Assembly (NCBI GenBank): GCA_964035545.1
Contig: OZ037771.1
Coordinates: 5,822,628 to 5,886,627, forward strand
Length of the DNA: 64,000 nucleotides
Direction: 5' to 3'
From: Bugula neritina
Lineage: Eukaryota; Bryozoa; Gymnolaemata; Cheilostomatida; Bugulidae
Under the pieces are notes generated by a model. It saw nothing but the letters and a program-made list of their open reading frames with translations. It searched no databases and was not told the DNA's origin. Position 1 is the stretch's first letter. Every line of letters starts with the position of its first letter. Positions 496 to 46,400 of the stretch are shown here, one piece after another. A program made the translations under genes and the position numbers.

Positions 496-3400
496 GACTG
501 AGGAGTAGTGTTTTATCATTTCTCTATTTGAATGACAACCAGATAACTTCTGTAGACAGGCTGGCTCTGATTGGTCTCTTTAACTTAGAGGTGCTGAGGC
601 TACACAATAATAAAATATTTAATGTAAGTATTTCAGCTGACAAGTGCCTGGTGTAGCTACTCAGTGTTCCAGTGGCTATTATAGCGGCAATGCATCGCAC
701 ACATGCTATAGTTTATTATCATGTTTATTAATATGAAAACTGCAAACATGTTGCAATCTTAAAATAAAATGCTGAAACAATAGAGAGTAGAACATCAAAA
801 AATAAATACCCATTGTTTTACGATGGCTCCTTATAATAATTGTTGTATTCTCAACTACCTAATGTTCCCATTTTTAAATAAGAACAGCAATAATTTATAG
901 TAATTTGTAATAAATAGCGATTATTTGCTATGCATTTCTATGCAATGGGGTTGTGAATTGGGAATACATAGTTGTCAGATCTTGTGGAATGCTTTAGATT
1001 GACTTTTGTGAACTTAACACGTTTCTATGGACACCAGTTGAGCAAAACCTGTTTGCAGATAGCCAAGGTCAATCAAGGACATTTCAGTGAGTAGGTTACT
1101 TCCACAATATTATTATACTGTTTGTTAGACTCTTTGTATACCACCTTGTCATTCCAATTTCTTTAGAGGTTGTGGTTGAGTCAGTGAAATGAATGGTTAG
1201 TTTAAAATTGCTTAAATTTTATGTTTTTATGCAAAGTAGTAGATTTTATTGCCATTATTACTGTTTCAAGTTTTCAGATTGAAGTATTCTTCAAAACACA
1301 ACTCAAATTTTTATCTAACAAATTAGGAAACCACTTGCTGATGATTTTTAGTTAACATTTATTTATTCCTGATTACCTATCAGCTTAATTTTGGCCTGTG
1401 TTCTTAAGGCACTGATAACTGGAAAGGGTTGCAGATTAACATGTTGATATTTTGTCTGGAGTTGTCTTCTCAAAACAGTGGTAATATACCAACCCCTTCT
1501 AAGTATAAAATATGTTATAACTTTAGTACTGGTAACTACCATTAAAGATGCTAGCAGTCTAACCCCCTAGACACACTTTGCCGTACCGTAGGCTGTAACG
1601 TAAAATGTCAGCCATTTTAATGTGTTCATGCTGAAGTTCCCAAAGTGCGCTATTGTGTATGATTCATGACACCTCATTGGACATCTATATTCAATGAATT
1701 CACGTGGACGTCTTCTTGTCCAATAGGAACCCGCCGCAACATTTTTCAATCAAGCAGTGCTTGATCCTAACGTACAGCATCACCGTATAGGAAGCTAGGA
1801 CATTTGTAAAAATGGCTGACATTTTACGTTACGCCCTAGGGTGTGGCAAAGTGTGTCTAGAGGGGCACAACAGTCAATTGCATAAACTAGCATACTATCA
1901 TAGAGCAAATGTTGTGTAATGACTAAATTTGATACCTCATGTTAATTTAGTGAAAAAATGATGACGTTGAGTGGAAACCCGCTCAGCTGTGGCTGTAGTA
2001 TGGCATTCTTTAGGAGGTTTACTGATCCTTTGCCAGAAGACTACTTGAATGAGCCACCATTAGTACTTACTTGGGAGGTAGTTACTTTACCTATTTGTGT
2101 AGTCGTTAGTATTCTGTATACAGTAGAGCTTGCACTCTTATGGTTACCTACCCGTGTAGAGTTGACACATGACATGTGGTCAGATCAGCGTATTTCCTTT
2201 AGAATTTCTTGGAAAGCAATTTATACAGTGCATATAGTGTCGGTGCCAAAAGGGTTTGCACTCTTTTGTAGTTGAAACAATTATTTTTCAACATAATATC
2301 ATATCTAAGTCATTTTATTTATTTATATATTAATTACTTCTTAAAAAAGCTGTTTTTTGGAAATACATAATAGTTCAGGTTTTCAAAGCCTATGTTACAG
2401 CCTCTGCTTTATACAGTCTTTCTTTTTATCTATACTATTCGGCAAAAAATTTGCAGTCATATTTTATTTTTTTGTCCATTTTCAACAGTAAATAATGTGC
2501 AGTATACTCTCTACTTAATCATTTCAATCTAATTTCTGGTTACATTGTATTTCTTACAAGTAATTGATCTATATAAGACTTTCATACAATCTATTATTTA
2601 TCACTATTACAGAACCAAAAACAAATACTTTTGCATGTTTCAATACTAATAAGTTTGTTATTCTTTTTATTTATTAGCAACTTTCTGGTACGAAAGTCCC
2701 CACTTGCTCATTTGGGGGGACAAATTTAGTTCATCAGATTCGCTTGACTGACTTCACCATAAAAACATCATCATGTGTGAATCCTAGAAGACTGAGCTGT
2801 GGTTGTCAAGTTCCAGGTGCTGCCTGCTGTCATACTACCTGTACCTGTTTAGTATATTTAAGTTTCTATGTATTGCATAACGCTTATCTATCTGAGTATA
2901 TTATAATATAGTACAATAACATGCATGTCTATGTATAATATAATGTATTATATGATCATCTGAAAACTTAAATATTGCATAATGTAATATATATCATCTA
3001 ACTATATCTTGATATTGTCTAATATAATGCATTATACATGTTTCTACAGGGTGTGTACTAATATAATGTAATACTATCTAAATATCATTATATTGTATAA
3101 TACACTATAATGTATTATACACATTTAATAGCTGTATTCGTATTACTGTTTGTATTCTTATCTATATACACTATTATGTATTTATTTTACAGATTGTAGA
3201 ATAATTGAAGTTATTTTTGAGGTAATCTGTAACTTGCTTGTTTTGCAGAGACTGAAATAGCCTGTGGATGCAGTTATTGTGCTAATGGTGGGACATGCAA
3301 CCGGCTCACCCACTCTTGTGATTGTCCTAGTGGCTATACTGGGGCATCATGTTCCATCTCTGAAGAGTCTCTACCCAAGTGTGGAGTAGCCGATACACTC

Positions 3401-5599
3401 ATCTGTAGAAATGGAGCTAAATGTGAGAATTTAAAGCTTTGTTTACTAAAAAAACTAATTTTAAATTGTAATTATAGCAGCACTCGATCGCTGTATAACA
3501 AGCTGGTCTATTAACCCACAGAAATTATTAAAGTCAGCAAACTACTAACATTACGTTTCTGAGTTTTGCATTTTGCAAATGGATTTTTTATTTGATGTTT
3601 GGAAACAGTGACATCGAATGAAACCCCAACCGTAAATTCGTGCAAACCGCAAACAGAAAATCATCCGTAGGAGCATTATATATTCGCATTATATAAAACG
3701 CAATATGTAACAGAATTAGGTAACAGGTTTGCAGTCAATAGACCTTTTTCAGAGGTCTCCGATATCCAATTTACAATTAAGAGTTGTGTTCTCCCAAAGT
3801 GAATAGGTTAAACCTTTGTATAAAGAGCAAACTCGTTAAAACTTTAAATTTTGGCTGCTACTTAAAATTTTAATTATGCAATAGAATTGTTCTTTTAGGA
3901 GATAGATATTTTGATATAAGCACAATTATTGGCAGTTCAAAAAAAGTTTTATAGATATTTCTTCATGAAAAATTTTGAAGAAAATAAACTTGAAAGCATT
4001 TTTGTGGTTTTTGTTACTGGCAATGCTGAAGAAGCACTTCAGCATTGCTCAGTAACCAAAACCACAAAAATACGTTTAGGTTTATTTTGTTCAACCATTT
4101 TCATTTTAAGAGAACACAACTCTTAATTGTAAGGGGGGCTATTGGGAACCTCTGAAAAAGGTCTATTGACTGCAAACCTGCTTCCTAATTCTGTTACATA
4201 TTGCGTTTTCATAGCTCTGAAAAGGGTTTATTCAATTCAATTAAATTATATTATAAATACAAGCATGTAATGAAATATGTAGTTCATTAGCAAAACTAGA
4301 AGAAAGATCTGCTTTCTCAAGAAATTGTTTGAGCATATAATACATTTCAGGCAAATGCCATTTTTTCAACAAAAGTTTAAAAATTATGTTCTAGTACTCA
4401 AATAAAATTGTTTCTGGAATTTTCCAAGCTAATGTTTTTATAATGATAGCCCACTAAAAGTTAAATTCACAGCCTAACTTAGCTTAAAATACTCTAACTA
4501 ATACACACATGACACTTTCAGGCGTAGACAACATGTGTGACTGTCTAACTGGTTGGGTAGGAGTGGAGTGTGACCTTAGCGTGACCTGTACTGTGCCGTT
4601 TCCATGCAAGCCGTGGCAGCAATGTGCCTCTCTGCTGTCACTAGTTGAGGCAGATAAACTCTCGTCTAAGATGCATGAGTTTCTCCATACAAAGCTCCAG
4701 TGTCTAGGTAATGGTTATTGTTGCTACATAGTATATATTTTGAGAGTTGTCTACACCATCTGGGTATGTATTTTGTGTGAGTTGTCTACACTATGTGGGT
4801 ATATATTTGGTGTGATTTGTTCACACCATGTGGGTATGTTTACAGTATATGAATATATTATATTATTACAATATTTTGCTTTAGTTCATTATATTTTATC
4901 CTATTGTATTGTATTGTAATTCATTTTAATTATGATATTGCATTATACTTTATTATACAATAATATACTATAATACATTATATTATTTTATATTGTGTCA
5001 TATCATATCATGCCTATATCATATTATGTATTATACTATATTAAGTATTAGATTCTATTATACTATAATTATTATATTTTTTATTTTGTGGTTTATTTTA
5101 CTTTATTATATTCTAGTTAAATTTTGGTAAACATAGATATCATAAAATTACAAGCTGGATACTTTATTCATATATCATCTGTTCTATAAAAAGTTATTTA
5201 TTCTGAACACAGACCCTGTGAACTATCCATGTCCATTATTTAATAATGCAAAATTATAACATTATAATAATGCATATTCACCTACATAATATAAGATTGA
5301 AATTGCTTCTGTAGACATCTCTCTACTGATGACTCAAACTTTTCCTTCCACTTCTTTGTATTGCTCAAAAGAAGACAATTCTGATTGTGAAAAAGTTGAA
5401 AACTCTATCTGCACGCAATTTGAAGATTACCATCTGTGTAGATGCCCTCTATATATACCTTACAGCCAATCTCATACAAAGTGTTCCAGTAAACTACCTT
5501 GTAAGTAGAGGTGTATATGTTGGTTAAATACAGTGTAAATATGTGTGTGGGTGCATGCATGTGTGTGTATGTGATGACTTATTACTGCATTTCAATAGG

Positions 5600-10225: not shown

Positions 10226-13200
10226 ATGACGGCAAACCCAAATGAGTACATGACTTTCAATAGGAGAAAAATAATTATCTGTGAGAAAGATGAGCAGACA
10301 GCTAACAGAGCTAAGAGCTTAGCTACAAAGTCAGCTACTGGAATTGATCGGTGTAATAACACTTTGTCATCTGCTGGTGTGAGGTCAGCCACCGGTGATC
10401 AATCTGCTAGAGTATTGCGGCACAGTTCCAGATCACCAGACCGTGGCAGCAAGAATGTCACGTTTGACCCTCTGCCACAAAGTCACACAATACTCGTAAA
10501 GTCAGCGGGTGCAAGCAGCAAGCGAGTAGCTGATAAAATTCACCACAGAGCTTCACCACCACGAATTTCTCTGTCTAATAGAAACAGAGACATTGTAACA
10601 GGTAAAGACAGATCATCAGAACGTTGTGCTGCTATTAGTGGTGAGAGTGCTGATACAGCTGTCACTACCCGCAGAGTTCATAAAACGCTGCCAGAAGAGT
10701 GTACTGCAGCATATCAAAGATTCACATACCTGCCAGGTAAGAACACTGTTTCACTTCTGTGTGAAAATAGACAAATAGTTGACCACATGTAGGAAGGTTT
10801 AACTATGTCAAGCATAGAACATCATAACCTGTTGCTGCCAAAAGAGAGGCAATACAATTTTTTTACAGTTGAATATTCAAGACATGAGAGAAAGCACTAC
10901 AATATACTTTTGCTAATGCCAGGGTGTTACTTACAATATAACGAAAAAGTTAAAAGAAGCCTTTAGTTTATAATAATTTGAATATTTTTTAAATCCATTC
11001 AGATGAGCAAAACCTGCAGTTTTAAGCCTAAAGATGCTACTGAATTACAAGACCACATTAAAAATCATTTATTAACAATTACTATAAAAATAAATCAAGA
11101 TTGAACCAGTTACACATCAAAAAGTGTAGCTTCTTTATAAATTAAACCGTACCTATATTACACTGTTTAAAATATGTCATGCATGTAAAATACTTTAGTC
11201 TAAGACGTAAATACATGATATCATAGACGCATAAACCTCATCAGATGTCCAAAGATTTTCAACTTTCTGTGCTTTATGCAGTTTATGTGATGAATACATT
11301 GTACATGTATCACTCTAACAACATAAATATAATCATTTGGGTTGTAACATTCACTCTTTCCTGATTAATTAACAGATTTATTCTCCTTAATATAAAGCCA
11401 CTGCACATCATTATGTGTTTTGGTATATTTTAATGTTTGAATACCTCATGAATTAGCTGTGTAAACGTAAAATATTTTATAAATAAGCACTTGTTAGGCA
11501 ACTAGTTCAAGTTTCAGGATTGATTTGTTAAGATGGTTTCATCCCACTTAGTGGGATGACACCGTTAAGATCATGGCAGTTGCTCATTCAAAAGATGAAA
11601 GGTGAGATTTGAGTCTTTGCAGGTCAAAACTTTACATGTGTGTAGCTATCACCCATCTGTCTGCTGTTTATTAATGTTATGGCCTGCTTTATTCATGTTG
11701 TAGCTGTAAAGCTGATCTCAGATGATACACCTTCATGGAAAGTTCCAATTCTTCAAAGACGAAATAAAGAAGTCATTGACAATTTTCTAGTGAGTCAAGT
11801 TACGGCAGCTTTTCATGCAGCTTATGTATAATTCTATATGTAATTATACTTTGGAATTCTATGTAATTTTGTATGTACATTTTCCATATATACGTATAAC
11901 GTATGTATATTTTTTATGTACTTCCAGTGTATTCCCTTATATGCTTTCTATTTAACTTGCTCATTTGGCTAGATTGCCTGAAATTTCATGACTTGCTCCA
12001 CATGCTACACTAAGTGTTTTCTAAAATTGTCTTAATAAAATAAAAGTAGACAGCTGGTAAAATGGTCAAGGTATTTTTACACTGTAACAGCAAACTGCAC
12101 TAATTTACAGAGCAAACTTATATGGGTGAAAAAGTTCAAACAGGTGTACTTCATTGCATAACTTTTCACAGCAAAGAATGAAACTGGAAAAGCAACTGGT
12201 GAAACACAGTGTGCACTTTGAAGAACAAGAGAAGCCAACTATGATGCAAAGAGTCCCTAAAACACAAAGCATGGCTCAGAAGGTTGTTTGTAAGATGGTT
12301 CCCATAATGCATAGCTTTTTGTAAACATGCACCAACTATAAGACTCTTTTGTCTACATTGCTATTGCTGAAAACTTTTATGTACAACCTAACGTTATTTA
12401 TTCAATGACAAGGTATCAGTACTCCAAATTTTTTGAGATAGGAGTTAGAATTAACAATTAATCAACATTGAAGATTAGCATAATATAGCTTGCTGTAATT
12501 AGAACCCAGAAACCATATCTAAACTTCAATATATGAATTGAAGATCACTTTAAAGTTCTACAAATGGTTTCAACTTTTCACCTTAGAACTGTTTTCAACT
12601 ACTAATTACATATGTTGTGTTTTATTTATATGACAAGCTTCACCAAACAAACTTTTCAATATTTTTTCAATAAAAAGTACAAAACTGTTAAAAGTTAGCT
12701 GAAATTATTTGCCTAAATAAAATGTAAATTTGTTCTGTCTAGGTTAAAAAGTTTACTAAAAACATCTTAATTATTTAATAAATTGTAGTATAGCTATTTG
12801 ACTCAAAACCAGGGAAAAGATAAAATGTAAATTTGTTCTGTCTAGGTTAAAAAGTTTACTAAAAACATCTTAATTATTTAATAAATTGTAGTATAGCTAT
12901 TTGACTCAAAACCAGGGAAAAGATAATATTCCAGTGAAAAGCAAAGAGCCAGATAACTTTGTGCAGCACTTAATACCTCCTTGGAAACAAGAGCTTCTGA
13001 TTAGAAGAAAACAGCGTGAGCGGCTAGAGAGTCTCCCAGCGTGGCAGAGAGAACTTATCCTTAAGAAAAGAGTATCTACTTTAAAAGTTGGCCTAGAAGA
13101 AACGTGTAAGATGTCTGGTAGCAGTACCACCCAGCCATTGCTCTGGTCTAAAACGCCAGTTCCTCAGTCTACAACCTCAGCTCCCTGGTCTAAAGCAATG

Positions 13201-13227
13201 CTACGAACAACTGGCAGCTGGAAGTAA
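10226..13227 (+). CDS. P-x-W-K module protein, phostensin/taperin/espin-like (347 aa)
   Basis: Four exons close in frame: 10226-10736, 11704-11789, 12172-12282, 12892-13227 (1044 nt). Residues 1-170 are polar and Ser/Arg-rich and contain KNVTF at 76-80, which fits the RVxF docking motif for protein phosphatase 1; a weaker KHSVHF is at 210-215. Three P-x-W modules follow: PSWKVPILQRRN (180-191), PPWKQELLIRRK (265-276) and PAWQRELILKKR (285-296). The last two sit side by side, as in the N-terminus of vertebrate phostensin and taperin, proteins that bind PP1 and F-actin; espins carry related modules. The inferred role is an actin-associated PP1 regulator. Overall similarity outside the motifs is too low for a gene name. 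The donor of exon 3 (CAGAAG|GTTGTT) is weak; a GTAAGA lies 7 bases on but does not give an open join to exon 4. Confidence 0.7.
12721..12926. repeat. 103-bp direct tandem duplication across an intron/exon border
   Basis: The segment starting AATGTAAATTTGTTCTGTCT at 12721 is repeated without visible change at 12824. Each copy includes the acceptor TTGTAG and the exon start TATAGCTATTTGACTCAAAA. Copies separate after GGGAAAAGATA: copy 1 reads on into a stop (GATAAAATGTAA), copy 2 reads into the long final exon. Confidence 0.95.
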
Positions 13228-13252
13228 ATAAAACAAGTGACTCAAAAGATTA

Positions 13253-13258
13253 AATAAA
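13253..13258 (+). terminator. Candidate poly(A) signal, P-x-W-K gene 1
   Basis: AATAAA occurs 26 bases past the stop at 13227; another copy overlaps the stop, and a further one is at 13536-13541. Confidence 0.4.
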
Positions 13259-13259
13259 C

Positions 13260-14283
13260 GATCCAGTTTTTATATCGGCCTAATATAATATTCTTTTTTC
13301 AAGCATTTGTATGTTAGTCATCGCAGATAGTTACTCAAAATTGTTAACTTATATAATATATTTTTAAAACATAATATTGCCTGTAAGACTTGTAGCTTTA
13401 ATGTAGCAGTTGCAGCATTATCATGTATATCAGTGGACTTAGCCACGCCCATTTGGTGAGGTTAAGCAAAGTGTAGAATAGGAGATCTTCTTGAAAATGT
13501 CATCTAATGCTGCTAATTGTAGAACAAGTGTGATTAATAAACCTGCTCTATTTTGTTTATCTGTTTGTTTTTTCTCTGATCTTAACATTGTATTTATTTA
13601 TTTAATTTTAAAATAGTTGATTGTGTTTTTGCTATAACTTCAGGCTAGCACTATGGCGGCTGCTTACAAGTGATGCTAGATGCTTCAGGTGTAGTCATTC
13701 AATGAAATTTATTATTCAGTACATGTGTTTAAATATAATCAAATTTAATGGACTCTTCTATTTATATGAATTTGTTTCATGTGCTTATACCTAAATAATT
13801 TGGGATTATTTTTCATAATTTTGCTAGCTATGGAATTAGAACAAAATATTTCAAAATAAAGCGTTCTCTGTGAATAATTATACTTGTATTTCTACAACAC
13901 ACACCACAGTAATTGTACGACAATAATAACAATCTGAAGTGAAATAAAAATAAAAGATGGAAATACTGCTATACTGTCTAACATTTATAAATATGCTCCG
14001 GTGATAATTGTTTATACATTATTAGTAATACGCTAGCAATTCAGCAGATATCATTTTGTATTTTAAATTGTGTAAATATTTTATGCATTTTAAAGTTTAG
14101 CTATCACTGTATACTGCCTAGTGAGATAACAAGCTAAAGCATGCACTTAGCTTTATATATATAGTAAGTTGAGCATAACTAACTTGACTTAAAACAACAT
14201 GAGAGACACAAATTATTACATATTCTTATTTGAAATGTAGGAAAATATTTTTTTTGTATAAGATATATATTATAGCTGGTGAG
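13260..14283. other. Convergent 3' spacer
   Basis: AT-rich DNA between two genes whose 3' ends face each other. No exon seen; presumably 3' UTR and terminator sequence for both. Confidence 0.5.
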
Positions 14284-17200
14284 CTAATCTGTATTATCAC
14301 CACTGGGTTCACTTTCCTGATCAAGTTGCTCACTATCAAAAGCGGAGTTATTCTCTCCTGATGCTTCATCTTGGTCACGTGACATTGTTACAGCTTCCTC
14401 TACTTGTTCACTTGATTGGTGGTTATGCATGCAATTCTATAAGAAAACACGTGTATTATTATTCTGCACACAATTAAGGATGAATGAAAAGTATTATAAC
14501 TCCTTCTCACAACTGTTAGTTAGAGCGGGCAGACAACTACTCACAGTCATTTCTTCCTCTGATAAGCTACTCTTTTTTCTCAATAACACTTTTCGCTTCC
14601 ATTCAGGTAAACTTTCAAACTTTTCTCTTTCTTTCCTCTTAGCCTCTTCTATCTTTTGCTGAATTTCCTAAGTTATTATCATTAAAACAAAACCATCAGC
14701 TTTGTGATACACTAAGACTCTCAAGTATTATTTATATTCCATATCAGGTTGAGTGGACAATTCTCAATATTCAGTGTCAAAAATTTCCAAATATTATTAC
14801 TCAGCTACACCAACTCAACATAAACGAACAGAGCGATAAATAACTTTATATTCGCACTCAAAGAAGCCTAACGACCCCCCAGTCCACCACCACATTCTAT
14901 AGCCGAAGGTCACTACCCCCTATAGCCCAAGCTCACACATTCTGTAGTCCAAGCTCACAAAATTCTACAACTTGAGTTCACCACATTCTATAGTCCAAGA
15001 GAACAACATTTTATAGCCTAAGGTCACTGCATTCCATAGCTTAGAAGTAATCTCACGACCACACTCTTTAGCCTAAGTTTAACACATTCTATAGCCCAAG
15101 CTCGCACATTCTATAGTCCAAGCAAACAACATTCTATTGCCTAGAAGTAATCTCATGACCACATGCTACAAACTACAAGTAAATAAACACAAAGCTGATC
15201 ACCTATTTAAATATATGCGTGTCAAGTGCAGCATTCTAACACACATCAACGTATTTTACATTTCTCTCATCGCTGCTGACATCCCTATATGATTAGATTC
15301 ATGCTCTCATGTGAATTCTGTAACCAATCATCACTTCTATAGTAAGTATGTAGATTGTAGTACAACCTACATGTTGTAAAAACATGTGCAGTATTCAGTA
15401 AAAACAGCAGGATACAAATTACACACATTGTTTACTTCTAAAGATATTAGCTTTGCATATAATGTAGTTACTATAGAATGCAAGGCTAGTGGCTCTCAAT
15501 GCAGCTCTGCAAAATGATTTGTATTATAATTTATATAATAGATGATGCTTAGTTGTATCCAATAGTAAATAAATTTTATTGTATAGAAAAGACCCTGTAC
15601 TTGCAATACTTTAACTCATTACTATATCATTCCTTGACTTATAAAAAAATTTAACTTGCGGTTTGCATTTTAATGTACTAACTTCACCTACACATAAAGT
15701 GTGCTACTAGTTTCCTTAGCAAAATGACGCAACTATATTATATAGTACTTTATAAAGTGAAAGTACTACTCACACTGTTGAGTACATTTACTAACAACAC
15801 CATTGAACACTATTATTACGAATACTGTTAAATACTATTATTTTTATATTACTACTCAATGTGTGTATGTATTATTCATATATATTAGTTGATAATCTCA
15901 CTATGTAACAAAAATTAATGGCTGCACAAAGGCAACTGACTAGATTTAATGAATCGCTGCACATTTTTACCATCTCTTTGAGAGCTGCAGCCCATGGGCC
16001 ATAGAGGCCTAATTACACTAAGATTAAATGTAGTACTGACATGTCATCAATGTTTTTAATATAATTAATTTGAGGATATATTATGATTATTTGTTCCATT
16101 TCAATTGCTTTCTACATTTCAATTGTTTTATGCATTGTGTTTTTACTTATGGGCAAAAACTGCCCACTTTTTTGACACTATCTTATTACTAATAATTACG
16201 TTGAGTGTCCACAAAGTCTTGAAGAAACTTATCCAATTGTTGAAATATCCTCACCATATATGTGTCACAGTTCATGAGGTATTTCTGCATATAGCTGACA
16301 CACATAGTTTGTGCGAACACCTAGATTAGTTGATTAAATATCATGAACGACTAGTGATAGTGTATTTTTTAAGTTCGATGTCAAGTAATGATAGTATTAG
16401 TATCATAAAGTGTGTTGGAGTTTAGGCTAGCAGTAGACATCAAAACCTTACAAAGCTCTTACTCATGCTACACCCACCTCTTGCTCTTTTCTTTGGATTT
16501 CTTTCTTCTTCACCAGAGGCCTTTTCCACTCGGGAATTGCCTCCCAACGTGCTTCTTCTTTCTTTCTTGCTTCTTCTTGAGCCTGCAGTTCACGCAAACC
16601 CAGATTATTATGTGAGCTTAGCAGGATATGTATGTTACACATCACTTTATCCAGATTTAGTAGAAGCCATGCTGTTTTGTAGGCACGTTGCCAACGTCAC
16701 TCATAATTGACGTTTTGCTGCATACTAAAAGATGCATGTGCGTCACAAGCAATTGCTGTAACACTTAGAGTACCTAAAGATTTTAACTCTTCTTATACCA
16801 AACCTCATAATATCAAACAAGTAGGTTGTGAAGACAGCATGACTATCAAGTTCTAGCACCGACTCAGTAAGATGACTGAAACACAGTTAGGGTAGTGGTC
16901 TTAAGTTAACATATGAACATTTATCTGTCTGTATACTGAGATAAACTCAATTCAAAATCAAACTACAAGTTGGAAACTTAAGCTATGCCAGGTTACACAG
17001 TATACGTTAAAATTATCTATAAGCAACCCTTAGTTGGGGTGACTGAGTGCAATAGTTTGGGCGTCGAGTTTGAAGTTAGGATTTCGAAGTTAAAACTTAA
17101 ACCCGAGAACCCCAAATTACTGCACTCATTCACCCCCCAACTCAGGGCTGCTAATAAAATAACTTGTATATGTAATATTACAATAGAAGTGTCCGCATAA

Positions 17201-17952
17201 TATTATAATCATGCTTATATGAAGTTAATGTTGAAGATGATTTTTAAATTTCTTCTTTATTGAGATGTCATTCAACAATAGTGAAACACACATATTAACA
17301 AAAAGAACACCCTTAATTGATCCAGTATATTGGCTAGTCCCATATATGAAGAATTAAATATTTTACAAAATATCTTTAGATAAGGTTAAATAAACTATTT
17401 GAATAAGGGATTCTTATTGCATAATGTATTCTCAAATCTAACAAACTTTACCAGATATTCTGTAATCAGTTTCAAGTTTTTCTCTTGGATAGGCTTATAT
17501 TGCCATTGAGGTGTTTCAGAGTCTATCAGTCTTACACCTTTCACGTGGAGGTAGTCAGTGATGTTGATATCAGAGATGTCACAGACCGGCATCTACATAC
17601 AGAGAGGAAGACATATTGCTGCCAACTGTCTAATTACTGCTAACCCCGTGTTGTAGGTACAAAGTATTCTATTAGTGTGATATACTAAAAGCCAGTCAAA
17701 TATTGATGAAATTAAACATTATTATCTCTCATGAATTTAACAACTGAATCTATTATTCTAAAAACTTTTCTATTTTCCAGTGATATCAACTTAATGTTTA
17801 CAAAACTAGCATAGTACTTGACATGATATAGGAAAAGTAAAAAACAACTTTTTACATTATAGATAAATTTCTTATTATACTGACCTTGAAACAAGTTTTA
17901 GGCAGAGTTTTTAGTGCATTTAAGTAGATCTGGTCAATATTGAAACGCACTG
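14284..17952 (-). CDS. Second P-x-W-K module protein, convergent (5' end not located)
   Basis: Exons in transcript order: 17952-17885, 17592-17452, 16582-16478, 14667-14545, 14436-14284, all GT-AG and phase-compatible, ending in TAG at 14286-14284. The first exon reads VRFNIDQIYLNALKTLPKTC, possibly the end of a leucine-rich repeat. Then come three P-x-W modules: TPQWQYKPIQEKN, IPEWKRPLVKKKE and LPEWKRKVLLRKK. The last two are joined by a charged helical stretch (IQRKEQE / EIQQKIEEAKRKEREK), as in espin-type actin-binding regions. The tail is acidic (QVEEA ... SEPSGDNTD). Role inferred as actin-associated. The 17592 exon could itself begin with its ATG, since its acceptor falls exactly there, so the 17952-17885 exon is less certain. 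No start exon was found up to the NCBP2 gene at 19 kb. Confidence 0.6.
14870..15170. repeat. Diverged minisatellite
   Basis: About ten degenerate units built on ACATTCTATAGCCCAAGCTC lie in the intron between the 16478 and 14667 exons of the minus-strand P-x-W gene. Confidence 0.8.
17022..17152. mobile_element. Small inverted-repeat element, family A copy 1
   Basis: The left end AGCAACCCTTAGTTGGGGTG and the reverse complement of the right end (AGCAGCCCTGAGTTGGGGGG) match, and the match runs on through TGAGTGCAATAGTTTGGG. Two more copies lie at about 42328 and 50022. Confidence 0.8.
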
Positions 17953-19003: not shown

Positions 19004-21730
19004 TCATTTCATTTTATCTTGCACTATTTTTCCGTATCCACCACGACCATCATCAAAGTCAGTTCTGTACTCATCACGAACCTGCAACATCATAAAATAT
19101 AAACTCAGCTGTGTATTAATACGCTCACTATAGGATATACTCACTTACTATACGATATACACATCAAGTATAAAATATATACACAATACATAAAAGATAT
19201 ATCCACTTAGTACAGACTTTCTTTATTTAGTATATTTTCACTATAAAACTCACTTACACAAGTTTACAGTTGCCATCCTGTGAGAAAACCCTTGATGGAA
19301 GAGGTTTTTGTTAAATCAGGCTAAGGACTTATTCATATGTGGCACAGACAATTATGACTGGATGTTCTTCCTAGCATCACCAATGGCCTTTGTCGGGTTC
19401 AAACTCATGACTTCGTGTTTACTAGACAAAAGCTCTAACCCCTAGACCACGGCTGCTCCCTATATTTTCACTATACAGTATTTATACTCAGTAAAGTTAT
19501 TTCCAACAAGCCACAATAAGTTGACTCACCTGACCCCCTGACCGACCTCGGCCAAACTGCCTCCCTTCCACGAATCCCGCGTCCCAGTCCGTACGTACAA
19601 TCCTGTCATCAAGACGAGTCCCGTTCACATACCTCATGCAGTTCTCCGCATCAGCCCTGTCATAATATCTAGTATCTGCTAAGGAAACTTGCAAGTGATT
19701 TGAACATGACACAGATGAGTATTGCAAACACAATATTTTTTGTAAATGTTGCATCATCAAATATTTAATGCAGCTAAACAATGTCCAATATATTGTACAT
19801 TTATACTTGGCATATTACAATTAGTTTGTTAGATATTACATAAGTAAATGGTCTGATGTAATATTTGTTATTGCAGACCAACAAAAACTAGCAGTTCTTT
19901 GTATGACAGCACAGGCACAATAGCAAAGCTTTCAGTCTATTTCATTTTCTGATAAGACAACTCCTGCATTACAATTTTTCTTCGTACAAACAGCCTGAAA
20001 CATGAGGAACAAAACTGCTCTTCTAGAAAATTATTATGAAACTTTACAAAAAGAGAGTAAATACTCAAGACTTGGAAACCGTACATTATCTGAAGTACTT
20101 ATATTGCCATAGAAAATCTTTTGCTATCAGCATTTTTATATCACCAAAATGTCTTTGATTTATTGAATCAACTTTGAACAAAGATATTTGAATCAGGAAA
20201 ACATACTCAACACCATGAAACGGCTGACCTCAGGTAAACACAATACACAAGACTAACTAAAACAAAATAATATCTTTGATCCTTTTTTCCTTCCTGAATT
20301 GAAGAATATATATTCACAGGGTAAAAGATAATGAATCAATTAGAATCGGGGAGTCTTTAACTTTCTAGTGGTGCAAGAAGTTGTAAGCAACACGAGACAC
20401 ATGAAGAAAGTTCATTTTCAGCAGCTTTTGATTCAGATAATGTGTTTAAACAATGCACATGTTTTATGAGCATGGACATTGACATAAATTAAGAAAATTT
20501 CATGAAGCTAACACAGCTTTTATATCGACTGATTTATTTTGAAAAGGTCATCTAGTACTTACCAATTCAAATCATATACTTTTCACTCCCCACCTCAACA
20601 GCTCAATTCACCTAGATTTTACTCACTAACTGATAAAAAGGATACTCTACAAAGCAGAAACCACAAGGTGTCCTCTTATGCTTGTCTAAGCCCATTATTA
20701 TTCGTTTAACATCTCCTCCCCGAGAGAACAACTCCCATATCTGCTCTTCAGTTGTGTAGAAGGAGAGGTTTCCTACGTACAGCGTGGTGCTGGCCTTGAG
20801 TTTCTCTTCCTGTAGGGTCCGGCTACCCTGTCATATGTCAAGAATATTTTTGACACACACCGTCAGTGCCTGCTCATTATTTCACAGTTTGTAATATCTA
20901 CTAACAACCAATAAACATGGCAACATGCTTGTAGCATCTACTAGCTACGAATGACCATGCTTGTATAACCTGGTAGCAACCAATGATTCTAAACACCAAT
21001 GTTATAGTGTAAATTCAAAGCAGGACCACCTTGTTTACGTGTCCATAGAAATAATATTACGTTAACATGATGTTAGAGTCGTATGCCCGATAACAATAGA
21101 TTTCTTGGCACACTTTGTGAAACCATAGTTATTAACTTGAGAATTTACTGGCTGATGACATTGCAGTTGGGTTCAGTCAGGAACTGAGCCAAAGGTGTCA
21201 AAATGTAACCTGACTGGTGTTTACAAAGCGACTTGCTTATATTAACTGCCCTTCTAGTAGATTGCAATGTATAACCAGGTGATCTGGGTTAATGAGTCAA
21301 TAGAAAACATGGGCTCCCAAAATATACTCTAAGAAAATTAATTTGCATGAGCGAACAGCTCTAACATCAACATTTAGATTGTGTCTACAGCATTTTCTTG
21401 TATATTTTATTGTTACATATATGTATGTAAGGTAGTCCGGACTTGAGTACAAAGAAATACTATTTGAAAAACTAAATGAATGTTAGTGCTGACCAGCTTA
21501 CGTTTTTTTAGCTTATCATTAAAATTGACAAGTGGCAAGTTCTTATGCTAAAATATGCCAACTTGAAGCAAATGTAGCCTGTAATCCATAAGATATAAAA
21601 ACAAAACAGACTGAAGATGCCTCTACTTGAACCAGCATACCTTGAAGTGTTGGTCTCTGTAGTTACTGAGAAGAGTGGATTTATGCTGCACTTGTCGGGT
21701 TTCTGAGAAAGGGCTTTTCCACACATCCAT
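19004..21730 (-). CDS. NCBP2: Nuclear cap-binding protein subunit 2 (CBP20)
   Basis: Four exons, 21730-21641, 20827-20646, 19668-19530 and 19081-19004, give 489 nt and 162 aa (about 156 in human). CBP20 binds the 7-methylguanosine cap of nuclear RNA with CBP80. One RRM is present: RNP2 LYVGNL (46-51) and RNP1 CGFCFVEY (85-92). The family-specific parts are all there: YRDQHF with Tyr24 and Tyr47 where the cap-stacking tyrosines lie, [46 protein letters not shown] and a GRGGYGK tail. The start is the only ATG before YRDQHF in an open frame. Every junction keeps phase; Glu91 is rebuilt across GA|A. Only the N-terminal 20 residues look unlike known CBP20. A SINE sits in the last intron. Confidence 0.97.
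19255..19457 (-). mobile_element. tRNA-derived SINE, family S copy 1
   Basis: Read on the minus strand, a tRNA-like head (CCGTGGTCTAGGGGTTAGAG, then B box GAGTTTGAACCCG) is followed by a core GGTGATGCTAGGAAGAACAT and a tail with GGGTTTTCTCACAGGATGG. The same core and tail recur at 32826. The SINE lies in the last intron of NCBP2. Confidence 0.85.
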
Positions 21731-23981
21731 ACTAAGAATATAAATGCTTGGTTTTATTCAGCTACCTATTTATCTCTGATCTCATGCGTTATTAAAAATC
21801 AATGCATTAATTTTTTTCATTTTTAGTAGCACTTATAGTTGTACTAAAATAACTATTAAAATATAAAATATTTTACTTAGAAATACCAACAGTAGATACT
21901 AGTACTAGCTACAATGACGAACAACTAAAAACCTTTAGCAAAATAGACTTTAGTAAAATTAAATGTTCTCCTGGTTTAACAGGATCAGTATTAGTTGATT
22001 GTGGTTATAAATATTTAGTATCAGTCTGAGTCACAGTAGGAATACTACACCAGACCTTTGTTGTACTCGCAGTAGTACTCAGACTCACATTAGGGTACTG
22101 GCAGTAAGTACTAAGGAAGAGCATCAGTGAGTACTTACAGATACTTTAGCAAAAGCGAACAATAGTGGTAATGACAAGGTTCCACCATTAATAAAAGCAT
22201 AACGATAATTATTACTGCTACACTTAATCTTATGGTGATCATATTGGTATTCATTAGTATTATGATTATAAGAATACGTACCAAGCAGTGTGATCAAAGC
22301 ACTATAATTACTATAATTACAATATTCATTTAATCTTAATTACATTTTTAATAAAAATTGCAATGAATAAATTTTTATAATTATTACTGAAAAATAAAAA
22401 ACTATCATTATCAATGATAATCAATAATGATCCATCACCTAATGATAATATAAATATTGATATAATTATTATGATAAAAAAAATAAATTATCATTATGTT
22501 GCTTTGACCACATTATCATTAAACTCAAATTATTAATCATCTACTTCTAGTTTTACTATTACTGATCACCATAATTAAATTCAATATCACATAACCATAG
22601 CTGTAGTACTAATACTTGGTCTAGTGGTAGTAGTAGTACTAATACTTATTAAACAATAATAAATAATTATAATACTGGTAAGTGTAATACTAATGCTAAT
22701 ACTAATGGTAATATTAATAGCATTGCCATTAGCATTAGCATCACTATTTATGAATGTATTATATTTATTTATTATCCAGTTTCATATTGATACAAATTAA
22801 AAAAATTATAACTTAACTTTAAAATATAATTATATTTATTATTATTCTATATTTATGATTTATCAAGTTCAATAAAGTCAAAATGAAAATGAATATGAAC
22901 ATTACGATTATTACTAAATTCAATTGTATTGAATTTTCTTTCAGTCTTTGACTTTCTGTTTTCTGATTTCTAACAGTAACACTTACAGATTGAGGTTACA
23001 GTTAGTGTTACTGTTAAACTTAATCATAATGAGTTAGTGTTACTGAGAGTGAGTTGGTGTTACTGAGTTAGTGTTACTTAAAGTGGGTTAGTGTTACTGA
23101 GTTAGTGTTAGTGTTACTCAATTTTTAATGTGTTATCAAGTGTAAAACTATGAGTATGACTAACAGTATCAGTGAGTGTAACAGCAACACTAACTCCAAC
23201 TGTAAGACTAAGACCAGGAGTAAGACCAAGTGTAATTGTAAGTCAGTAAGTCTGTAAGATTAAGCGTAACCTCAGCGCTCAGCCTGTAAATAAATGTAAG
23301 TGTAAGAGTAAGACTAAGAGTAAGTGCTACACTAAGTCTAAGTGACTAACAGTAACTCAGTAACTGTAAATTAAACTTAAACCTAAAGTTAACTGTTAAG
23401 TTTTAGTTATTTAATTTCATTCTAATAAATAAATATTATCAAAATAAACCATATTTAACTTTGCCTAAGAGATTGTCATTTACTTTTACACTATAATTGT
23501 AATTGGAAAGCTCATACACATGTGAAATAATATAATTATATACTTATAATTATATTACTACTTCAAAAGTAACATTGTGATTGTAATCATTATGATAATC
23601 ATTATGATTATGATTATCTTCATACACATTACACTGCTGATGTTGGTGCGATACTGATCCGAGTGAATGGCACGGATATTACCGAAAACCCTGCACATGA
23701 AAGTAGCATAGCCATCAGAGTTATCTCCTAAAACTGGTAGAATAACTCCCGGATAGCATAGCGATCCCTAAAGAACGCCAACCATAAGAAGCAGTATGGT
23801 GTGGAACAGTTACCCTTTTATTGATCATAAATGTATTAGCAATGGTGAAATATATTTATAAAGTGTTCCTAATTATAGCTGCTGCCTAGTCCCAATGAGT
23901 CAAGTTACCCATTGCAATGTTATTTGACTTTATTAGTAACTGCCTATGCTGCAAGCAAATACATAGTTTTTATATACAGTA
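21731..23981. other. Spacer upstream of NCBP2, simple-sequence rich
   Basis: Strongly AT-rich DNA with clouds of diverged short repeats: ATTATTATGAT-like at 22180-22900, GAGTTAGTGTTACT units at 23020-23120 and TAAGTGTAAGAGTAAGAC units at 23200-23340. No gene recognised apart from a doubtful protein-like stretch at 23636-23731. The NCBP2 promoter should lie just above 21730, but no clear element is visible. Confidence 0.6.
23636..23731 (+). pseudogene. Possible PDZ-like coding fragment
   Basis: A 31-codon frame ending in TAA reads VGAILIRVNGTDITENPAHE, which resembles the middle of a PDZ domain (I-L-x-V-N-G-x-D-I-T, then a His before the helix). The stretch is richer in GC than its surroundings. 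No splice acceptor or partner exon is seen, so it may be a relic or chance. Confidence 0.2.
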
Positions 23982-26769: not shown

Positions 26770-29700
26770 TCAACTTTCAAACATATTTTCATGAGCAAGA
26801 GCTCCCCGCCTGGGGTAGAACTGATGATCCACAGAGTAGTGAAGCAAGTTGCTGAGGGAGGCTGTATATATATCGGCAAACCTATGGAGTCTCCTTGAGA
26901 AGTATGTGGGGTTGTGGAAAGTCCTGAATATACTTCCAAAGTGAGGGTTTATTAGGTCTTTCGTTCTTTTCCTGTAAATTCAATTTTTTTAGAAAAGCAA
27001 AACCCTTGCTTGAGTTTGCATCACTTTCTGTACAGCAAATCAGAAACTACAGCTGTTTAAAACTGAGTCATAGGGTTCTTGTAATGCCAATCTTAATCTA
27101 ACAATTGCCCGTATAATCTATAATGAAGCTTAACAGTTTAGTATTAGTGCTGATGAAGTAGTCAAGACATACTTGATGGTGATGAGCTCCATCTGCCAGG
27201 AGTTGAGCAAATCATCAGGAGCAATATCCTACAGAGGAGAACACATCACTTAAATATATCGGAGCTTGATTTACTCTCTGAACTTTCCAGTTATTCAGTC
27301 TTTGTTTAATATGAGCTAATAAAATTATTGTTTACAGTTTTAGGCAGCTTGGGTCAAATTACGGTTAGTTAGCAATTACATTCAAACCTCAGCATAGCAA
27401 ATGAAAACTAATAGAAAATCCTAACACGTAAGAATTGATAAACTTTGAAATTGTTAACAGAAGGTAAGTTTAGTGCTAACTAAGTACTAGTGAAGTACTA
27501 GTTAAGTACTAGTTGAGTATGACTTAAGTGTTAGTCAAGTACTAGTTAAGCTAAGTGCTAGTAGGATACTAATTGAGTATTAACAAAGGTACTAGTTAAC
27601 TATTAGTTAGGTGTTAGTTGAGTATTAGTTAGGTACTAGTTAAGTACTAGTTAGGTGTTAGTTGAGTATTAGTTAAGTTAGGTACTAGTTAAATTAGGTA
27701 TTAGTTAAGTTAGGTACTAGTTAAGTTAGGTACTAGTTAAGTATTAGTTAGGTGTTAGTCATGTACAAGTAAAGCGCTAGTAGGATATTAATTGAGTATT
27801 GGTTGAGTACTAGTTAAGTATTAGGTGAGGTTCTAGTCAAGTATTCATTTGCCTGGTATTTCTCTATGAGATCCTGCAAGCCAACCATCAGAATAACATC
27901 TCTTTTAAATTCTTCTTTATTCAGTGCATTGATCTCATTCTGTCCAACATATCACACCAGTATTCAGCAGTATAAACAAAATCCTAATTATCATTGCAAT
28001 AATTCTTCCTATAAGAATATACGCATTTAGTACAGTGATAAAGTACTGTAAAAATCAATCCACAAGCTTCAGCAGTATATATTGATGAAAACCCTTCGTA
28101 AGTAACTATTTCACCATTGAGTGACTACATTCTGCATGTCAGAATCATTCACAAAACATATTCATAAGCCACTCCTATATCATAAAATTTTTGTTTCTTG
28201 ACATGTCTCTATGTAAGCGGGGCAGATTTTTTAGAGTCTCAAATAATTGGATGATATAAAGGTTTGACAAAATTAATCAAAATTAGTTTTCTTTAGTTTC
28301 ATCTTTTACAGCAGTAAATTAATTTTTAATTAATGTAAAATTAACTTAAATAGCCATTTAAAACATTTTTGTTGAGAAAAAATTATCGTAAGAGTATGAA
28401 TATACTAAGTACAATGTTACAATGTTACATACAGTTAATTCGGGAATTATAGCCCCGGTTCTCCAGCCATGATGGAGGGTGGCGTCAGCCAAGTCCGTGT
28501 ACACATGATCACCAAAGTATAGCACCTTGGAGCCGGACCAGCCAGTGAACCTCTGGAGGTCAAACAAGTTACCTTCAGAGTAGACACAACCTTTCTCTAA
28601 CTGAGACACTCTGTGCCAGAGGGTTGAGTTCGTATCATGGTTGTACATCCGAAATGGTCTAGAGCATAGAGTTACAGTACATGAAAACTAAAATGTATTG
28701 CAAACACATCATATCGCGATAATATGTATATAGAGTAAAATATATATATAAAAATCAAGGAGCAAATACACTCATAGGTAAAATAATAGCATTATTCAAG
28801 CCTGTCCGAGGTGTCACAGAGTAATGAAGCAGTGGCACTTACTTGGCAGCTCATTTCTAAACACAACAGAATCACTACAATACTTGTGGAAATTTAAGAG
28901 CCCAGGAAATGTAAAATGGCAGGAAATATTACTTGATGTACCTTTTGTTAGAAATGAAAAAATCCGGTTTTCTTGCATTTATGATGACGACATCAAACTT
29001 GTCTAGCCAATCAGCTCCAACCATGTAAGTCATGCCGGCATTTCTAGAGAACATAACATATTGTAAAGATTACAGATAACATTACAACCCCAAAGGTAGA
29101 CTTGCAGTAACAGCAGCTGTACAGTAATAATCTCAGTAGTAGTAATAGTAGAGGTGGTGGTGATGGTAGTGATGGTGATGGTAGTGATGGTGATGGTAGT
29201 GATGATGATGGTAGTGATGGTGATGGTAGTGATGGTGATGGTAGTGATGGTGATGGTAGTGATGGTAGTGATGGTGATGGTAGTGATGGTGATGGTAGTG
29301 ATGGTGATGGTAGTGATGGTGATGGTAGTGATGGTGATGGTAGTGATGGTGATGGTAGTGATGGTGGTGGTAGAGGTGGTGGTGGTAGAGGTGGTGGTGG
29401 AGAGGTGGTGGTGGAGATGGTGGTGGAGGTGAGTATTAGTAGTAGTAGCAGCAGCAGCAATAGCAGTAGTAGCAGTAGTAATATTGGTGATGTGGCAAAC
29501 AATGTGTGAATAAAACCTACATAAATGGGAATCCACTATTTGAGATAAGAAATAGTTTCTTATCACGAGAAATCAGTCTGTCTAAGAGTTCAGCAATACG
29601 TGAACTGTTGGTTAGGTACTTCTCCAGGTTTCTGGTGATCTCTTCGTGAAGCTGACCAGATGTGTGTATACTTTGCACTGAGCTCTGAAATCACACGCTT

Positions 29701-43400: not shown

Positions 43401-46400
43401 CGCTTCTGCTGGGATAGCCAATTGAAGTGCCGTAATATTTACTTCTACCACCTCTCGACCTGTCTTCTCTCACACCTACACAATGTGCAGAAGGATAGAC
43501 TCAGATACTCTGTATGATGAATAGAGAAACCCCTTCCCCCCCCCTTTCCCATTGCGTTAGAATGTACACCATGTGCATGCTGTATGTTCGCAGTAGACTC
43601 AATATCTGTACCATTCTATTGAACAAAGATTCCCTGAGCAGTTGATTTTATAAAACCAAAGCAACTTAGTACAGCTATAATAACGATTAGACACTGTATG
43701 GAGTGAGCTACAGAGACACCAAGTTTTCCACCAAAGACTCCATGTTCGAGTTCAACTCCCATATGCCACTTTAGCACACCATGGATGAAACCGTGGTATG
43801 CTAAAACCCACATGTTTGAGAGAGAGGTTTAGAAGATGCTATTCTATTACAGCGGAAAGCAGGCTAGATTTTACTGATTATATTGTAAATTTAGAGTCTA
43901 GTAACGCAATAGTCAAAATATCCGCAATATTTCTGTTACTGTGTGGTAACACTGCTACTGTGTGGTAACACTGCTACTGTGTGGTAACACTGTTACTGTG
44001 TGGTAACACTGTTACTGTGTGGTAACACTGCTACTGTGTGGTAATATTAATCTGGTTTTTAAGCTTGGTTTGAATTTTGAAAACCAATCAACTGACAAGA
44101 TTCGAGTCACCAAGCACTTGACTCAAGCTGTCACTGGAAGTATTCAGAGTCAAGACATGTTGACAGGTTTACCAGACTGGCTCACTAACCTTCAATCTTC
44201 ATGCCAACATCACAGCACTTCTGGAACCTGCATGCAGCACACTTCTTACGACTGCTGAGAGAGATATTGCATGTGCCGCCCCTGTGACACGTGTGAGTCT
44301 TCTTATTCTGAACCGTTCTCTTGAAGAACCCTTTACACGATTCACAGGTTTGTACAGCGTAGTGGTAACCTTCAACACAGTAACACTGGCAGGGAACACT
44401 GTCAGGGAAGGGAGATAAGAGAGAATAAGGTAAATACGTGGGTGTGATATATGATCGAAATCTGCTCTAGCCTACTTCAAACCTTTCCAAATGTCATAAG
44501 ACGTTGCCAAAAACTTTGAAGTAAAGCAAACTCTATATATACAGCCTTCCCACACGGATTTAGACTGTGGGCTCCAGAGACATAGCATGACATACTGATA
44601 CTGTACTGATGGGCTAACTAATAGACTAATGTTCCCAATGAATGCCTTTCAAGACAATTGTCTGCGCAAAATAAACAAGGTTTTCAGCCAAACAAAGCAA
44701 CCATACATGAAAAAGGTCAGTAAGGAAAACGGTTAGGCAAGTCAGCCCAAGTACAGTGTGTCAGCCAAAATTGTCCTGTCTCTAGCTGCATATGGCTAGT
44801 AGAATATACAATAGAATACACTGTCTACCTCATACTACACATAGAATATACTGTCTACCTTATACTACAGATAGAATATACTGTCTACCTTACACTATAC
44901 ATATAATATACTGTCTACCTTACACTATACATAGAATATACTGTCTACCTTATACTACAGATAGAATATACTGTCTACCTTACACTATACATATAATATA
45001 CTGTATACTATACATATAATATACTGTATACCTTACACTATACATATAATATACTGTATACCTTACACTATACATAGAATATACTGTATACTATACATAT
45101 AATATACTGTCTACCTTACACTATACATATAATATACTGTATACCTTACACTATACATATAATATACTGTCTACCTTACACTATACATATAATATACTGT
45201 ATACTATACATATAATATACTGTATACCTGTTACTACGTCACCACATATAGGACAAGGCTTAACATCAACTTTCTCATGTTTAGAGGCAAAATCTCGAAT
45301 TGTATTGACAACAGACTTGACAATGGCATTGACATCTTCATTCTCCTTATCACTGAGTGGTACATCTTCAGTGAGGTCTAAAGACACATCGTCTGGAAAA
45401 CATAACATACATGTACGTAATGTGTGTATACGAGAACGCCAAAGCACAAACATATTTAGACTAGCATTAGCGAAAAATTTTCAAATTGCAGTTCCCTTCT
45501 TAATGATAGACAAATATGTGAACATGTTCACAGTATAATGTAGACCAGACCTAATGCAGTCTGTGTAGGGCTAACAGGCTAATATTTTAAAACATATTGT
45601 ATTTAGGTTGACTAAAACTAAAACATGTATAGAATAAGGTAGCCAGGTAGTACTAACTATAAGAGCATAAATTTTAATTCGGTTATAAAAACTTGTAATA
45701 ATACAATAAACCATTGATCTATGTGAAAGTGAATAATACATATACACAACATACACAACCCCAAGCATTGAGTAGAAACTTCTTTTAGTCCAACTTTCTA
45801 CTACAGATAATACAACTTTGGAGCTGCTTGATACAAGTAAATCATGTCTTTAGACTTAGAAACTGGAACTGAAAGGATATGATATGAAGGGCGTACCTAG
45901 ACCCCTGCTGGCAATAGGTGTAACTGTGTCTTCAAATACAATGTTCCCATCTCCATCCTCCATTTGTACAACAACCTTCATTCCTAGTTTCTGCCTCAAC
46001 TTGTGCATGATAGCAGCTTGATTTACAGTGTCTACGAAGTTGTCTCCTATCACTTTGATGACAAGATGGCCGTCAGCATTTTTATTCGGAGATGTGGTAG
46101 CCATGAGCGAGGGAACTTCCTCTTCCTGAATAGTCTCTTCGCCAACTTCCGTTTCTTCATTAGAACCTTGCAGAGTGTATAGTTAAAAGGTGCAATTCAG
46201 GCCATAATAGCAGTGGTAGTAGTTAGTAATAGTAGTGGTAGTAGTTAGTAATAGTAGTGGTAGTAGTTAGTAATAGTAGTGGTAGTAGTAATAGCAGTGG
46301 TAGTAGTTAGTAATAGTAGTAGTAGTAGTTAGTAATAGTAGTAGTTAGTAATAGTAGTAGTAATTAGTAATAGTAGTTATAGTAGTAATAGGTTGCACTA

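What the first reader, a model, noticed from the sequence alone, without database searches (positions are those of the whole stretch)
10226..17952. Two convergent neighbours, each with three P-x-W-K modules
Seen: gene 1 (+) has PSWKVPILQRRN, PPWKQELLIRRK, PAWQRELILKKR; gene 2 (-) has PQWQYKPIQEKN, PEWKRPLVKKKE, PEWKRKVLLRKK. Their stop codons are only about 1.06 kb apart, tail to tail. Modules of this kind occur in phostensin, taperin and espin, which bind actin, some with PP1. Finding two such genes side by side suggests an inverted duplication, or a functional pair, not described as far as I know.
Basis: partly seen in the sequence, partly recalled or inferred. Interest (0 to 1): 0.75.

Follow-up and report, generated by a model that had tools for sequence, protein, structure and literature searches.

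The report
Bryozoan actin-bundler-like gene pair, tail-to-tail
Two small neighbouring genes of a bryozoan, facing each other tail to tail, look like old duplicates of one gene whose short tryptophan-containing helices resemble parts of vertebrate actin-filament proteins, and one of the two also carries a possible docking site for the enzyme protein phosphatase 1.

Summary
In detail: six P-x-W-K/Q modules lie where stated, in two convergent genes whose stops are 1,056 bp apart. The source is Bugula neritina or a near relative (NCBP2 neighbour 99% identical to its Cbp20). The genes are each other's nearest relatives found in the 216-Mb genome: gene 2 exon A matches only itself and gene 1 exon 2; gene 2 exon C and gene 1 exon 4 match each other next after themselves. 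Module 1 ends at an aligned phase-0 donor in both. Ancient tail-to-tail duplication is likely. Modules 2 and 3 resemble the phostensin N terminus (recalled sequence; z 10.7 and 8.9), but neither protein reaches Pfam's Phostensin_N cut-off (best 17.7 against 23 bits), so I do not file them as phostensin. Gene 1, not gene 2, has an RVxF-PhiPhi-R pattern for PP1 docking. Most likely both are small multivalent F-actin binders, gene 1 also recruiting PP1; this is inferred, not shown. Transcripts are untested.

The parts
10226..10736 (+). Gene 1 exon 1: start ATG and about 170 residues, basic and Ser-rich, disordered by eye (not tested); phase 1 donor CAG|gtaaga
   Evidence: no AG between the in-frame stop and the ATG, so no upstream splice reaches the ATG in this frame; finds only itself in the genome (1 candidate); no Pfam family over its cut-off
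10451..10525 (+). Gene 1 residues 76-100: RVxF-x8-PhiPhi-x9-R pattern (KNVTF, IL, R), candidate PP1 docking site
   Evidence: found in 2.1% of 20,000 shuffles of gene 1 by the loose pattern, 0.06% by the strict one
11704..11789 (+). Gene 1 exon 2: module 1 (PSWKVPILQRRN), phase 1 in, phase 0 out
   Evidence: the only other place matched in the genome by gene 2 exon A
12172..12282 (+). Gene 1 exon 3 (less certain): short linker; the better donor may be after 12289
   Evidence: open frame with GT/AG; two consistent exon 3-4 junctions
12916..13227 (+). Gene 1 exon 4: modules 2 and 3 (PPWKQELLIRRK, PAWQRELILKKR) and stop; the exon may begin at 12935
   Evidence: predicted as two helices, each starting right after the P of P-x-W, pLDDT 92-93 over its residues 21-50; next best match in the genome is the gene 2 exon C region
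17452..17592 (-). Gene 2 exon A: ATG and module 1 (PQWQYKPIQEKN), phase 0 out; follows a TAG that can be an acceptor, so a non-coding first exon ending near 17885 is possible
16478..16582 (-). Gene 2 exon B: module 2 (PEWKRPLVKKKE), phase 0 both sides
   Evidence: matches itself and exon C in the genome (2 places)
14545..14667 (-). Gene 2 exon C: module 3 (PEWKRKVLLRKK), phase 0 both sides
   Evidence: matches itself, gene 1 exon 4 and exon B (3 places)
14284..14436 (-). Gene 2 exon D: acidic C-terminal tail and stop
13228..14283 (.). 1,056-bp spacer between the two stop codons

Best explanation
One ancestral gene was duplicated tail to tail and the copies diverged strongly. Each keeps a module 1 in an exon ending in phase 0, followed by two canonical P-x-W-K modules. 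Each canonical module would be a basic helix capped by the P-x-W (predicted here for gene 1 exon 4 only) that binds the side of actin filaments; several in one flexible chain would cross-link filaments into bundles, as the N-terminal part of taperin and the espin bundling module do. Gene 1 has in addition a long, probably disordered N-terminal tail with an RVxF-PhiPhi-R pattern that would bring PP1 to the filaments; gene 2 lacks it and would be a plain binder. Shown: modules, open frames, mutual nearest kinship in the genome searches made. Inferred: actin binding, bundling, PP1 docking, transcription.
For: Gene 2 exon A against the 216-Mb genome matches 2 places, itself and gene 1 exon 2 (E 0.016; the match ends at the last residue before both donors). 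Exon C matches 3: itself, gene 1 exon 4 (E 0.015), exon B (0.06). Gene 1 exon 4 matches 3: itself, the gene 2 exon C region (E 0.007), and a place on C1 at E 2.3 that I did not examine. Shuffle z 9.1 for module 1 and 7.9 for exon 4 against B+C, 0 of 3,000 shuffles reaching either. Likeness to the recalled phostensin N terminus: z 10.7 (gene 1 exon 4), 8.9 (gene 2 B+C), 7.0 (gene 1 exon 2); reversed controls 24 and 40 against 87 for the first two. PP1 pattern in gene 1. Two helices at pLDDT 92-93 in their core. Taperin 1-260 bundles actin (PMC12139522, passages).
Against: Gene 1 exon 2 used as query found only itself (1 candidate), so the module 1 match is not reciprocal. Only one intron is clearly shared. 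Both proteins miss every Pfam cut-off, and the best Pfam family of gene 2 is villin headpiece (16.1 bits), ahead of Phostensin_N (12.3). Phostensin's known actin site is elsewhere. Gene 2 exon A is only weakly like phostensin (z 2.9; 45 of 3,000 shuffles reach it). A loose RVxF alone occurs in 32% of shuffles of gene 1. Gene 2 exon A is predicted at low confidence (pLDDT 55), exon 4 at 69 overall. The phostensin and espin sequences were recalled, not fetched.
Confidence: 0.55

Rival explanations
1. The two genes are paralogues, but the modules do something other than bind actin, for instance bind a membrane, a microtubule or a nuclear partner.
For: Short basic helices are versatile (general knowledge); no Pfam family passes its cut-off in either protein.
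Against: Likeness to phostensin modules survives removal of P-x-W: no window 13-mer but gene 1 module 2 itself reaches its score against recalled phostensin module 1, and none but gene 1 module 3 itself against recalled espin module 2 (1 of 51,321 each).
Confidence: 0.25
2. Two unrelated genes that happen to be neighbours and independently carry similar short motifs.
For: Only short stretches align; the exon-intron plans differ apart from one phase-0 border; E-values of 0.007-0.016 are modest one by one; one search found no reciprocal match for module 1.
Against: For exon C and exon 4, in both directions, the best match in the genome beyond the query itself is on the facing gene a few kb away, and module 1 agrees outside P-x-W (z 9.1).
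Confidence: 0.15
3. One or both are decaying pseudogenes or wrongly joined exons.
For: No matching protein in a collection that does hold a Bugula neritina protein; the exon 3-4 border of gene 1 is ambiguous and a perfect 103-bp tandem repeat reaches one candidate acceptor.
Against: All exons of the models are open, with GT/AG borders and agreeing phases.
Confidence: 0.1

Closest known systems
Phostensin (PPP1R18), N-terminal region (Pfam PF13916 Phostensin_N)
   Same: Two P-x-W-K modules with a charged linker; gene 2 exons B+C align at 20 of 56 columns identical to the recalled human N terminus; gene 1 pairs modules with a PP1 pattern.
   Different: Below the Pfam cut-off; no KISF and no match to the published C-terminal actin motif; gene 1's PP1 pattern lies before the modules, whereas phostensin's KISF lies towards its C terminus (position relative to the modules recalled); gene 2 has no RVxF match.
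Taperin (TPRN)
   Same: N-terminal residues 1-260 bundle F-actin, and a region within them (15-107) resembles phostensin (PMC12139522, passages).
   Different: No NPF motif and no KISF here; taperin is called vertebrate specific in the title of Ferrar et al. 2012 (title seen in a reference list; paper not held).
Espin actin-bundling module
   Same: Two W-containing stretches joined by a charged one in gene 2 (recalled sequence; BLASTP 25.8 bits; z 5.6).
   Different: No ankyrin or WH2 family found in either protein; reversed espin still scores 73 against 93, so much of the match is charge.
Villin headpiece (PF02209)
   Same: Best Pfam family of gene 2 (16.1 bits); gene 2 exon C is the fourth and weakest of 4 places in the genome for this family (16 bits, E 3.8).
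   Different: Cut-off 27 not met; only positions 14-29 of 36 match.

Membership tests
Phostensin (PF13916) | Pfam Phostensin_N gathering score of 23 bits | tested here: not met
   17.7 bits gene 1 exon 4 and 15.2 gene 2 exon C; joined proteins 15.9 and 12.3; module stretches 17.2 and 12.3. The recalled human N terminus scores 39.5
Phostensin (PF13916) | Two P-x-W-K modules in tandem | tested here: met
   against a recalled sequence
Phostensin / taperin | RVxF-type PP1 docking site (KISF in both) | tested here: inconclusive
   Gene 1: RVxF-PhiPhi-R pattern with NVTF, not KISF; gene 2: no match to the RVxF patterns used. Binding not tested.
Phostensin | C-terminal actin-binding motif L(X)7(D/E)(X)6L(X)2(E/D)L(X)3L(X)2(K/R) (from PMC3546673) | tested here: not met
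   No match in either protein, strict or relaxed
Espin | Ankyrin repeats (largest form) and WH2 before the bundling module | tested here: not met
   No such family listed at E up to 10 in either joined protein
Espin | Bundling module with two W-containing sites | tested here: inconclusive
   z 5.6 (gene 2) and 3.7 (gene 1; 10 of 3,000 shuffles reach it); reversed control 73 against 93 for gene 2; recalled sequence
Villin headpiece | PF02209 gathering score of 27 bits | tested here: not met
   15.9 bits, 16.1, 17.1 for exons B+C
Inverted gene duplicate | Mutual nearest relatives in the genome, facing each other | tested here: met
   but one search found no reciprocal match for the 28-residue exon 2
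Inverted gene duplicate | Shared intron positions and phases | tested here: inconclusive
   One shared border, phase 0 after module 1; the other borders differ or are uncertain
F-actin bundling protein | Binds and bundles actin filaments | not testable with these tools
   needs co-sedimentation and bundling assays

The most novel reading that the evidence does not exclude
The P-x-W-K helix is an old, general F-actin cross-linking element that unites the N-terminal part of phostensin and taperin with the espin bundling module, and this bryozoan pair shows it in a very small form, split after duplication into a PP1-recruiting copy and a PP1-free copy. It would suggest how taperin bundles actin, which its authors call unknown; their statement that taperin 1-260 resembles no espin or villin motif stands against it.
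Probability: 0.25. Interest if true: 0.62.

Novelty: new variant of a known kind. Interest (0 to 1): 0.42.

Why it matters
Taperin deficiency ends in deafness, and its authors state that the way its N-terminal part bundles actin is unknown and that this part resembles none of the actin-binding motifs they list, espin's included (PMC12139522, abstract start, passages). Small invertebrate proteins made largely of such modules would be convenient test pieces, and a duplicated pair that differs in a PP1 pattern is a natural experiment in adding phosphatase recruitment to an actin binder. For Bryozoa it adds two gene models that found no match in the protein collection searched.

Tried and rejected
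Chance: rejected for the motif set and for module 1. Part of espin or of another large gene: rejected. No upstream splice reaches gene 1's ATG in frame, and gene 2 is hemmed in by NCBP2, whose stop lies at about 19,004. Pfam families in the genome: Phostensin_N and Phostensin found nothing, but the tool's controls rang nowhere either, so this says nothing. VHP served as a positive control for short families, with 3 of 4 places over its cut-off. Recalled espin and phostensin stretches found nothing in the genome, although exons of the pair resemble them by pairwise test, so that search is not sensitive enough to prove absence. PDB search of gene 2: one meaningless match, E 0.85; gene 1 was not searched there. 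Phage collection, gene 2 residues 1-114: none at E 1e-5. Structure of gene 2 exon A: too low in confidence to use. Direct phostensin-espin likeness: not supported (z 2.5; reversed 56 against 50). Literature searches. In the parts of their result lists shown to me I saw no paper on a phostensin- or taperin-like gene pair of a bryozoan or other invertebrate; they cover open-licence papers only, and searches listed mostly unrelated papers.

Full report
Observation. The six modules are at the stated places and in the stated frames. Joined by GT/AG borders they give gene 1 (+), 339 residues (335 with the alternative junction), and gene 2 (-), 173 residues. The stops are 1,056 bp apart. Gene 1's ATG at 10226 has an in-frame stop upstream with no AG between, so no upstream splice reaches it in this frame. 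Gene 2's ATG at 17592 directly follows a TAG that can serve as an acceptor; a donor near 17885 would make a non-coding first exon. The border between exons 3 and 4 of gene 1 is uncertain; either choice leaves the modules unchanged.

Organism. The window is C7:5822628-5886627 of a genome of 215,847,546 bases in 295 contigs. The neighbour on the minus strand, about 19.0-21.8 kb, is NCBP2; joined by eye from four exons it is 99% identical over its full length to Cbp20 of Bugula neritina. A published assembly of that species has 216.00 Mb (PMC11480708, abstract start in the search listing). I take the source to be Bugula neritina or a very near relative, a bryozoan.

Kinship of the two genes. Gene 2 exon A was compared with the six-frame genome: 2 places, itself and the stretch holding gene 1 exon 2 (E 0.016; 36% identity; the match begins upstream of the acceptor that I chose and ends exactly at the donor). 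Gene 2 exon C: 3 places, itself, gene 1 exon 4 (0.015), gene 2 exon B (0.06). Gene 1 exon 4: 3 places, itself, the gene 2 exon C region (0.007; the match runs past the exon's start and holds one TAG there) and a place on C1 at 2.3 that I did not examine. Gene 2 exon B: itself and exon C. Against this, the 28-residue exon 2 of gene 1 found only itself (1 candidate), and gene 1 exon 1 only itself. The tool scores only the best candidates of a first look, so these are not full censuses. Pairwise, module 1 scores 56 against a shuffle mean of 18.8, and gene 1 exon 4 against gene 2 B+C scores 84 against 35.3; 0 of 3,000 shuffles reached either. Both module 1 exons end with a phase-0 donor at the same point of the alignment. 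That the nearest relative found in 216 Mb is the facing gene a few kb away is hard to explain except by duplication. The low identity (36% in module 1) suggests that it is old.

What the modules resemble. No Pfam family passes its cut-off. Phostensin_N (PF13916, cut-off 23) scores 17.7 on gene 1 exon 4 and 15.2 on gene 2 exon C; on the joined proteins it is gene 1's only family (15.9), but for gene 2 (12.3) it comes behind villin headpiece (PF02209, 16.1, cut-off 27). The recalled human phostensin N terminus scores 39.5 on PF13916, which supports the recalled letters. Against that stretch gene 1 exon 4 has z 10.7, gene 2 B+C z 8.9, gene 1 exon 2 z 7.0 and gene 2 exon A z 2.9; reversed controls for the first two are 24 and 40 against 87. 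With the P-x-W positions left out, only gene 1 module 2 itself, of 51,321 window 13-mers, reaches its score against phostensin module 1, and only gene 1 module 3 itself against recalled espin module 2; gene 2 module 1 is not distinguishable from background against phostensin. Espin: z 5.6 for gene 2 and 3.7 for gene 1, but reversed espin scores 73 against 93 for gene 2, and recalled phostensin against recalled espin shows little (z 2.5; reversed 56 against 50). So phostensin-like is well supported, espin-like only suggestive; and the taperin authors see no likeness of taperin 1-260 to espin or villin motifs (PMC12139522, passages).

Structure. Gene 1 exon 4 alone is predicted as two helices, residues 22-39 and 42-65, each starting right after the P of P-x-W; pLDDT is 92-93 over residues 21-50, 85 over 51-60, lower beyond, 69 overall (single sequence). 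Gene 2 exon A is at pLDDT 55 and not usable.

PP1. Gene 1 residues 76-100 fit RVxF-x8-PhiPhi-x9-R. The loose form occurs in 2.1% of 20,000 shuffles of gene 1 and the strict form in 0.06%; a loose RVxF alone occurs in 32%, so the single motif means little and the spaced set somewhat more. One RVxF pattern also fits HSVHF at residue 211 of gene 1, without the rest. The RVxF definition and the spacing of five to eight residues to PhiPhi are in PMC10731240 (passages; that definition also allows L, mine V or I); the further 8-9 residues to R, and the author names on the patterns, are recalled. Gene 2 has no match. Neither has KISF or the published phostensin C-terminal motif.

Mechanism. Likely multivalent F-actin side binding by basic helices, giving cross-linking, with PP1 recruitment by gene 1. 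In print, taperin 1-260 bundles actin and the way it does so is unknown (PMC12139522, passages); the espin bundling module is thought to have two filament-binding sites (PMC3953818, passages); phostensin's mapped site is C-terminal (PMC3546673, abstract and passages). So the role of the modules is an inference from taperin and espin, not from phostensin.

Distribution. Neither protein found a relative at E up to 1 in 5.8 billion proteins (62 candidates for gene 2, 1,083 for gene 1). The same search with NCBP2 gave 4,144 proteins at E up to 1e-10; the 120 listed include arthropods, molluscs, annelids and Bugula. The null result is therefore somewhat informative, but that search needs shared 5-residue words and similar length, so long or diverged relatives would be missed.

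Verdict. A real and probably functional duplicated pair. A new variant of a known kind of module protein; not shown to be phostensin, taperin or espin.

Noticed in passing
window 12717-12922: Perfect 103-bp tandem duplication at the end of gene 1's last intron, reaching one candidate acceptor of exon 4; a very recent event or an assembly slip.
   Followed up: partly
window 14885-15172: Array of diverged direct repeats around ATTCTATAG(C/T)C in the long intron B-C of gene 2.
   Followed up: no
window 44188-44466 (-): Nuclear receptor DNA-binding domain (zf-C4, E 2e-20) with the P-box CESCKG, which I recall from the NR5A (FTZ-F1) group.
   Followed up: partly
window 19004-21757 (-): NCBP2/CBP20 in four exons recognised by eye, 99% identical to Bugula neritina Cbp20.
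   Followed up: yes
window 28361-28687 (-): Exon of a 5'-nucleotidase family protein (PF05761, E 3e-25).
   Followed up: no
window 3233-3511 (+): EGF-like exon of a further gene upstream (EGF_2, E 2e-4, 22 bits against a cut-off of 22.1).
   Followed up: no
window 29030-29572: Long simple repeat open in several frames on both strands; not a gene by itself.
   Followed up: no
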